Shown here piece by piece: positions 52,970-53,644 of a DNA stretch of 61,170 nt. Each line of letters opens with the position of its first letter. Within the stretch, counting starts at the first letter, position 1. Below the pieces are notes generated by a model. The model did no database searches. It had not been told where the DNA came from and was given only the letters and a program-made list of their open reading frames with translations. Both the position numbers and the translations under genes were made by a program. The DNA comes from Candidatus Thioglobus pontius (GTDB lineage: Bacteria > Pseudomonadota > Gammaproteobacteria > PS1 > Pseudothioglobaceae): positions 1 to 61,170 of the forward strand of contig JACNGB010000026.1 in assembly GCA_014384345.1 (NCBI GenBank), in the 5' to 3' direction.

Positions 52970-53125
52970 ATGAAAATTCTAGGGGTTGATCCTGGCTCAC
53001 GTGTCACAGGGTTTGGGCGAGGCAATTCCTCATGTCAACTAATTGCAAGCATCGGTATAAATTCCATAACCATTACCCAAATGCCAAGTTCGGGAGGTTT
53101 TGCCTCTATTGTAAATACTTTGTAG
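52970..53125 (+). pseudogene. ruvC 5'-end fragment running into foldback element (51-aa open frame)
   Basis: ATG AAA ATT CTA GGG GTT GAT CCT GGC TCA CGT GTC ACA GGG TTT GGG encodes MKILGVDPGSRVTGFG, then element sequence to TAG. Confidence 0.9.
53018..53107. repeat. foldback element type 2 (ruvC locus)
   Basis: GCGAGGCAATTCCTCATG ... CCAAGTTCGGGAGGTTTTGCCTCTA. Confidence 0.82.
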
Positions 53126-53161
53126 TAAACTGTTTTGCAATTATTTATATTCAAATAGCCA

Positions 53162-53644
53162 ATGAAAATTTTAGGCGTTGATCCCGGTTCAAGGATAACT
53201 GGATTCGGATTGATAGAAGCGCATAAGCTCAAGTTTACTTATTTAGCCAGTGGCTGTATTCGCACCAAAGGTGAGTTGACTGATCGTATCACCACTATCT
53301 TCTTAGAAATTGATCAAATTATTAAGCATCACCAGCCGGATATAGTGGTTATTGAGCGCGCTTTTATGCGTCCTGATAGGCCTAATCCGGATGCTGCTAT
53401 AAAACTAGGACATGCACGTGGTGCGATTATTTCAGCTGCAGGGATGAATGAAGTTGTTATGGTGGAATACAGCCCGAATCAAATTAAAAAAGCTGTTGTT
53501 GGCAAAGGTCACGCAAACAAAGATCAGGTGTCTTATATGGTGTGTGAATCTTTAAAACTTAACAAAGCGCCACAAGAGGATGCAGCAGACGCATTAGCAG
53601 GCGCTATTTGTCATGCTTACCATTTTTACCAAAGTAGGCCTTAA
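53162..53644 (+). CDS. ruvC: crossover junction endodeoxyribonuclease RuvC
   Basis: MKILGVDPGSRITGFG, VVIERAFM, DAADALAGAICH. Confidence 0.96.
   Translation: MKILGVDPGSRITGFGLIEAHKLKFTYLASGCIRTKGELTDRITTIFLEIDQIIKHHQPDIVVIERAFMRPDRPNPDAAIKLGHARGAIISAAGMNEVVMVEYSPNQIKKAVVGKGHANKDQVSYMVCESLKLNKAPQEDAADALAGAICHAYHFYQSRP

What the first reader, a model, noticed from the sequence alone, without database searches (positions are those of the whole stretch)
52970..53208. ruvC 5' end duplicated with synonymous divergence around the same class of element
An ATG plus 15 codons of ruvC (MKILGVDPGSRVTGFG) is followed by an ~86-bp element, then ~55 bp of AT-rich sequence, then intact ruvC (MKILGVDPGSRITGFG). 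By hand, 12 of 48 nt differ but only one residue changes (V/I). That fits a ruvC end derived from a different lineage, not a recent duplication. The outer fragment retains the presumed ancestral position next to the trx intergenic region, so the event appears to have supplied intact ruvC with a new upstream region.
Basis: partly seen in the sequence, partly recalled or inferred. Interest (0 to 1): 0.82.

Follow-up and report, generated by a model that had tools for sequence, protein, structure and literature searches.

The report
Mobile gene-end-swapping element at ruvC
In marine sulfur-oxidising bacteria (SUP05/Thioglobus), a tiny mobile DNA element of about 90-120 bases repeatedly inserts just inside the end of essential genes and brings a replacement gene end from another lineage, so the gene stays whole while its old end is left behind as a fossil; the duplicated ruvC start is one of many cases.

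Summary
Window 52970-53016 is a truncated ruvC 5' end (36/47 nt identical to the intact end, one V/I change). It is followed by an 88-bp hairpin-ended element E (53019-53106), a 55-bp leader and intact ruvC (53162-53644). E belongs to a family: 16 copies in this 1.25-Mb Ca. Thioglobus/SUP05 genome and copies in 12 of 84 family genomes. Nearly every copy sits between a truncated gene end and the intact gene, at 5' or 3' ends of ruvC, prfA, recR, uvrD, nuoB, hemW, fabH, metH and others. Comparison with relatives shows that the mobile unit is [E + replacement gene end]. In species G005 the last 36 nt of prfA plus E match the G000/G009 unit (36/36 and about 97%), while the prfA body and the displaced fragment are native. 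At ruvC, the outer fragment carries the upstream type found across the family; the inner leader is a different type. Differences between paired gene ends are mostly synonymous (82 versus 18). The closest analogue is the gene-end-replacing endonuclease ORF of fungal mitochondria, but E has no ORF, is bacterial, and no nuclease was found. Best explanation: homing-like insertion that swaps the gene end. The enzyme is unknown; passive recombination is not excluded.

The parts
52509..52877 (-). thioredoxin-like gene (WCGPC motif), divergent neighbour of ruvC
   Evidence: ORF list; sequence read
52926..52969 (+). ancestral-type ruvC upstream region (..ACTGTTAAAATATTTTT), now in front of the truncated fragment only
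   Evidence: matches G010, G011, G009-left, G077-left and E-free genera g3, g4, g6, g7, g10
52970..53016 (+). D: displaced native ruvC 5' end (ATG + 15 codons), truncated
   Evidence: direct repeat D1; nearest-relative comparison
53019..53106 (+). E: 88-bp element, GAGGCAATTCCTC...GGGAGGTTTTGCCTC, imperfect hairpin ends, variable middle
   Evidence: genome copies, alignment, pair counts on 37 copies
53107..53161 (+). replacement ruvC leader (TGTAGTAAACTGTTTT.. type), right arm of the mobile unit
   Evidence: 52/55 to G005; same type behind E in G077
53162..53208 (+). D': replacement ruvC 5' coding end
   Evidence: 46/47 to G005, 36/47 to D
53162..53644 (+). intact ruvC (160 aa)
   Evidence: ORF; orthologues
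41110..42201 (-). prfA, intact; its 3' end lies next to three units of the same class
40998..41087 (+). E copy at the prfA 3' end (90-bp, 88-type), innermost
   Evidence: sequence
40834..40933 (+). E copy (100-bp, 118-type) at the prfA 3' end, middle
   Evidence: sequence
40680..40779 (+). E copy (100-bp, 118-type) at the prfA 3' end, outermost; followed by its arm with a prfA end copy
   Evidence: sequence
40641..40677 (-). displaced native prfA 3' end fragment
   Evidence: comparison with E-free relatives

Best explanation
The ruvC start was swapped by a small mobile unit made of an ORF-less hairpin-ended element (E, 88 bp here) plus a right arm holding a leader and a replacement ruvC 5' end (D'). 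The unit inserts at one fixed point inside the gene, about 47 nt from its start. The arm restores the reading frame, and the displaced native end (D) stays on the far side of E. Shown by comparison: E and D' have been shared between species at the same site of the same gene, while the gene body and D stay native. Inferred: insertion works like homing. A break or nick at the target in an E-free allele is repaired from an E-bearing allele, copying E and D' with a short tract of flanking gene; the factor acts in trans because E encodes nothing recognisable. Also inferred: the hairpin with conserved ends is the recognition or processing signal.
For: (1) Family: 16 copies in this genome and copies in 8 of 13 genus genomes, almost all with D-E-D' anatomy. 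(2) prfA in G005: last 36 nt 36/36 to G000 and 35/36 to G009, but 27-29/36 to the relatives G001, G003, G004 and G012; the body is the reverse (89% to G001, 80-84% to G000). The fragment behind E is the native end (..GCGCTAGCTTAG CCTTCTAG, as in G004), and E is about 97% identical across species. (3) HI0933-like gene: E-free relatives start with TTG overlapping the upstream stop; E carriers have a shared new start ATGGAARCTAATTT. E of G009 and G005 is 90% identical while the gene body is 70%. (4) ruvC: outer fragment with family-wide upstream, inner leader of another type. G077 (another genus) has the same arrangement at the same codon, with a native upstream identical to its E-free sisters. 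(5) 82 synonymous to 18 nonsynonymous D/D' differences; 62% synonymous would be expected if one copy drifted freely (p about 1e-5). (6) 18 target points show a sharp step to AT-rich sequence on one side (79% versus 59% coding average), which suggests enzymatic site choice. (7) E ends are 93% identical among copies while the middle is at random level, with compensatory G-C/A-T changes at stem pairs 1 and 16.
Against: No nuclease, recombinase or longer ORF-bearing version was found: there are no long copies in the genus and no TnpB or LAGLIDADG match in 13 genomes. Some exchanged tracts exceed the unit (G005 ruvC resembles G000 again beyond nt 180), as ordinary recombination would give. At ruvC, hemW and znuC the E middles of G077 and G000 are barely more alike than random, so old transfers cannot be traced through E. 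In G077 the ruvC D and D' share some derived bases, which suggests gene conversion between them.
Confidence: 0.55

Rival explanations
1. E is an inert passenger. E-bearing alleles formed rarely long ago and now spread between strains and species by ordinary homologous recombination, and D-E-D' structures survive because they do no harm.
For: The G005 ruvC mosaic has exchanged tracts beyond the unit; locus-specific E lineages need no transposition; no enzyme was found.
Against: In G005 prfA and G077 ruvC the displaced end is native right up to E, so the crossover would have to fall within a few nt of E each time. E ends are strongly conserved while the middle is random. Targets show a compositional preference. 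Repeated insertions are stacked at one gene end (prfA three, HI0933 two, uvrD two).
Confidence: 0.27
2. E is a MITE-like transposon that makes very long target-site duplications (about 50-140 bp); D and D' were identical at insertion and have since diverged.
For: The D-E-D' anatomy equals a long target-site duplication. Some pairs are almost identical: G003 uvrD 97% over 133 columns, znuC 94%, geneX in G058 and G059.
Against: D' is foreign and shared across species at prfA, HI0933 and ruvC. Substitutions are too synonymous for a free copy. E's left end abuts truncated coding sequence and its right end faces the intergenic side at all 18 loci with a recognisable fragment.
Confidence: 0.1
3. Remnants of ordinary integrative elements or prophages with att sites in gene ends (as in icd or dusA), all internally deleted to about 90 bp.
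For: Such elements do restore the gene end with a diverged copy and leave the old end at the far side (general knowledge; dusA islands, PMC8409611).
Against: The same 88-118-bp element with identical ends is found at more than 15 different genes and in several genera, and no full-length relative was found in the genus or in 2.9 million viral contigs. Deletion would not produce conserved ends and lengths.
Confidence: 0.05

Closest known systems
Mobile endonuclease ORFs (mORFs) of fungal mitochondria: Allomyces atp6, Glomus atp6/atp9/cox2/nad3 (PMC3630166)
   Same: gene + inserted foreign gene end + element + displaced native end; the foreign end differs mostly at synonymous sites; the native end matches sister species
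   Different: mORFs encode an endonuclease, act in mitochondria and add C-termini. E has no ORF, is bacterial, and works at both 5' and 3' ends of many housekeeping genes
[quoted passage not shown]
   Same: gene fragment exchange through gain of an element that carries a foreign gene end
   Different: those are introns, some with homing endonuclease genes. E is not spliced; the gene is restored on one side
Genomic islands and chromosomal islands integrated in gene ends (dusA islands PMC8409611; SpyCI in mutL PMC4129442; icd prophages, from general knowledge)
   Same: integration inside a gene end, which can give the host gene a new end or upstream region
   Different: kilobase elements with an integrase and one fixed att site each; E units are 150-235 bp with no integrase and target many genes
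Bacterial MITEs and REP-like repeats
   Same: short, non-coding, inverted-repeat ends, dispersed
   Different: MITEs make short target duplications; the E unit carries a gene-specific arm
Integron attC sites
   Same: imperfect hairpin with an outer stem, an unpaired spacer, an inner stem and a terminal part of variable sequence
   Different: lacks the GTTRRRY/RYYYAAC boxes; no cassette array; the target is homologous to the arm

Membership tests
mORF-type gene-end-replacing homing element | foreign gene end inserted, native end displaced behind the element | tested here: met
   prfA G005, ruvC, HI0933
mORF-type gene-end-replacing homing element | element encodes a homing endonuclease | tested here: not met
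   E is 85-118 bp; fused ORFs match no nuclease family beyond the host gene fragment; no LAGLIDADG_1 match in 13 genomes
mORF-type gene-end-replacing homing element | site-specific cleavage of the empty allele starts insertion | not testable with these tools
   needs biochemistry; only indirect support from the fixed sites and the AT-rich step
MITE | terminal inverted repeats | tested here: met
   GAGGCAATTCCTC / GAGGCAAAACCTC ends
MITE | short fixed-length target-site duplication | tested here: not met
   flanking repeats are 17-135 bp and diverged, with the arm shared between species
MITE | autonomous IS partner with the same ends | tested here: inconclusive
   none in the genus by right-end pattern; wider search not done
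Integron attC site | R boxes RYYYAAC / GTTRRRY | tested here: not met
   outer stem is GAGGCAA/TTGCCTC
Integron attC site | integron integrase in the genome | not tested
Integrative element in a gene end | integrase gene within the element | tested here: not met
   no ORF space in E; the longest unit is about 235 bp
OMEGA (TnpB) RNA-guided element | TnpB-like nuclease in the genome | tested here: not met
   PF07282: 0 of 13 genus genomes, with positive controls
Known structured RNA | match to an Rfam family | tested here: not met
   no match with E up to 1 in 52500-53700

The most novel reading that the evidence does not exclude
A bacterial class of ORF-less homing elements that behave as natural 'cleave and rescue' units: an unknown trans-acting nuclease cuts the conserved end of an essential gene, and the element invades while supplying a synonymously recoded, cut-resistant gene end.
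Probability: 0.25. Interest if true: 0.93.

Novelty: new variant of a known kind. Interest (0 to 1): 0.8.

Why it matters
It shows small mobile units replacing the ends of essential bacterial genes across species and genera without breaking them, leaving a readable record of the old end. If homing is confirmed, it would be a bacterial and ORF-less counterpart of mitochondrial gene-end-swapping elements and a natural analogue of rescue-type gene drives. It also explains odd promoter changes and N- and C-terminal variation in the abundant SUP05/Thioglobus bacteria.

Tried and rejected
No Rfam match for the region. No copies in viral contigs. Hits in Bacteroidia, Verrucomicrobia, Pseudomonas, Planctomycetes and others from the genome scan have no flanking repeat worth the name and no conserved ends, and were dropped as chance. 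No long, ORF-bearing version in the genus. No TnpB or LAGLIDADG family match. The open frame running from the ruvC fragment through E (..RGNSS..SSGGFAS..) was considered as a functional small protein and set aside: D is frameshifted in G009 and mutated in G077, and the frame is not kept at 3'-end loci. A first random control for flanking repeats was contaminated by repeat-rich loci and was redone on the window alone.

Full report
What is there. The window is contig C36 of a 1.25-Mb genome. Relatives carrying the same element are named Ca. Thioglobus or SUP05 cluster bacteria. Between a thioredoxin-like gene and ruvC lie, in order: a truncated ruvC 5' end D (52970-53016), an 88-bp element E (53019-53106), a 55-bp leader and intact ruvC (53162-53644). 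D and the intact end D' are 36/47 identical and differ in one residue (V/I).

E is a family. BLAST and a covariance model find 16 copies in this genome, three of them at the prfA 3' end in the same window. Eight of 13 genus genomes have copies, as do 12 of 84 genomes and 4 of 11 genera in the family. A scan of 85,488 species genomes gave convincing copies only in SUP05-type gammaproteobacteria, and 2.9 million viral contigs gave none. Two size types exist (about 85-91 bp and 95-105 bp core). In 37 distinct copies of the short type, collected with a pattern that fixes most end letters, the ends average 93% identity while the middle is at random level. The ends pair as a hairpin: 7 bp, a 2x2 T/T loop, 4 bp, a mismatch, 2 bp. 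Stem pair 1 switches G-C to A-T in 6 copies with no mixed case, and pair 16, which the pattern did not fix, switches in 7 copies with 2 exceptions.

Anatomy. At nearly every copy the order is: truncated gene end D, E, a short non-coding stretch, intact gene end D'. E's left end touches the truncated coding fragment, whether the gene end is a start (ruvC, hemW, nuoB, HI0933-like, PfkB-like) or a stop (prfA, recR, uvrD, fabH, metH, aldehyde dehydrogenase, an ABC ATPase). Gene names other than ruvC are my reading of the translations. 28 of 36 copies exceed the 99th percentile of random points for the flanking repeat. Exceptions are short or decayed fragments, and G069, where 14 equal-scoring copies (the three I read are identical) ride inside long repeat cassettes.

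What moves. prfA is the clearest case. In E-free relatives the prfA stop abuts the convergent gene. In G005 the last 36 nt of prfA are identical to G000 (36/36) and nearly so to G009 (35/36), against 27-29/36 for its close relatives G001, G003, G004 and G012. The prfA body of G005 is 89% identical to G001 and 80-84% to G000. The fragment behind E in G005 is the native end with the native downstream sequence. E itself is about 97% identical between G005 and G000, against 84% for rpoB. So the piece shared between species is E plus the replacement end, inserted at one point. In the HI0933-like gene, E-free relatives start with TTG overlapping the upstream stop codon. E carriers share a new start, ATGGAARCTAATTT, absent from E-free relatives except G004, which also keeps decayed E remains. 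E of G009 and G005 is 90% identical while the gene bodies are 70% identical.

ruvC. The upstream type in front of the outer fragment (GATAAAATATTTTT before ATG) is the family norm, seen in E-free genomes of genera g3, g4, g6, g7 and g10 and in G010/G011; two of four g9 genomes and the g5 and g8 genomes sampled differ more or less from it. The leader behind E is of another type, found in part of the genus and, behind E, in G077 of genus g10, whose native upstream is identical to that of its E-free sisters. The leader of G000 is 52/55 and the first 90 nt of ruvC 87/90 identical to G005; identity then falls to background, and rises again beyond nt 180. G005 has no E now, but its leader joins a short E-like remnant (..GTTTTTCCTCTGTTGTAAATAC).

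Divergence between the copies. Over 16 in-frame pairs, 82 differences are synonymous and 18 not. Neutral change would give about 24% synonymous; one free and one constrained copy about 62% (p about 1e-5). Pairs with indels were left out, which favours less decayed fragments, and some pairs are not independent. With the species comparisons, this argues that D and D' were already different alleles when they were brought together.

Mechanism. I favour a homing-like process: an E-free allele is opened at the target point and repaired from an E-bearing allele, copying E and D' and sometimes some more gene. This explains fixed insertion points shared between species, native fragments up to E, foreign ends next to native bodies, and stacked insertions at one gene end (prfA three units, HI0933 two, uvrD two). 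Eighteen independent target points show 79% A+T in the first 7 nt on the gene side (coding average 59%) and 49% in the 8 nt on the other side, which hints at an enzyme choosing sites. No enzyme was found; TnpB and LAGLIDADG families are absent from the 13 genus genomes. Passive spread of old E alleles by homologous recombination remains the main rival.

Comparison with the known. The architecture is that of mobile endonuclease ORFs in fungal mitochondria, where a foreign gene end is inserted with the element, the native end is displaced, and the differences are mostly synonymous (PMC3630166), and of Tremella introns with N-terminal duplications (PMC7315562). E is not a member of those families, because it has no ORF and the nuclease feature fails. 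It is not a standard MITE, because no short target duplication is seen, nor an attC site, because the boxes are missing. I found no earlier description in bacteria within the held library; subscription papers are not in it.

Limits. E-values of the model are rough. Target points were set by alignment and can be off by 1-3 nt. Detection of D relies on recognisable coding similarity, so the asymmetry of E's ends is partly a matter of what can be seen. No expression or biochemical data exist here.

Noticed in passing
window 40641-41157: Three stacked units of two E size types at the prfA 3' end, each with a prfA end copy: a layered record of successive replacements.
   Followed up: yes
window 52970-53124: The ruvC fragment and E form one open frame (MKILGVDPGSRVTGFGRGNSS...SSGGFASIVNTL). 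By my reading the same phase holds at 6 of 7 start-type loci (P about 0.007) and at 3 of 7 stop-type loci.
   Followed up: partly
L211-L224 (G069, single-contig genome): Fourteen equal-scoring E copies, at least three of them identical, embedded in long repeat cassettes in a family relative.
   Followed up: partly
L036, L042, L054 (next to E copies): Another palindrome, TTATAGGC..GCCTATAA, near some E copies in G000 and G005; none in the window.
   Followed up: no
L188 (G004): HI0933-like gene with decayed E remains and the replacement start kept, the displaced fragment lost: an end stage of the process.
   Followed up: partly
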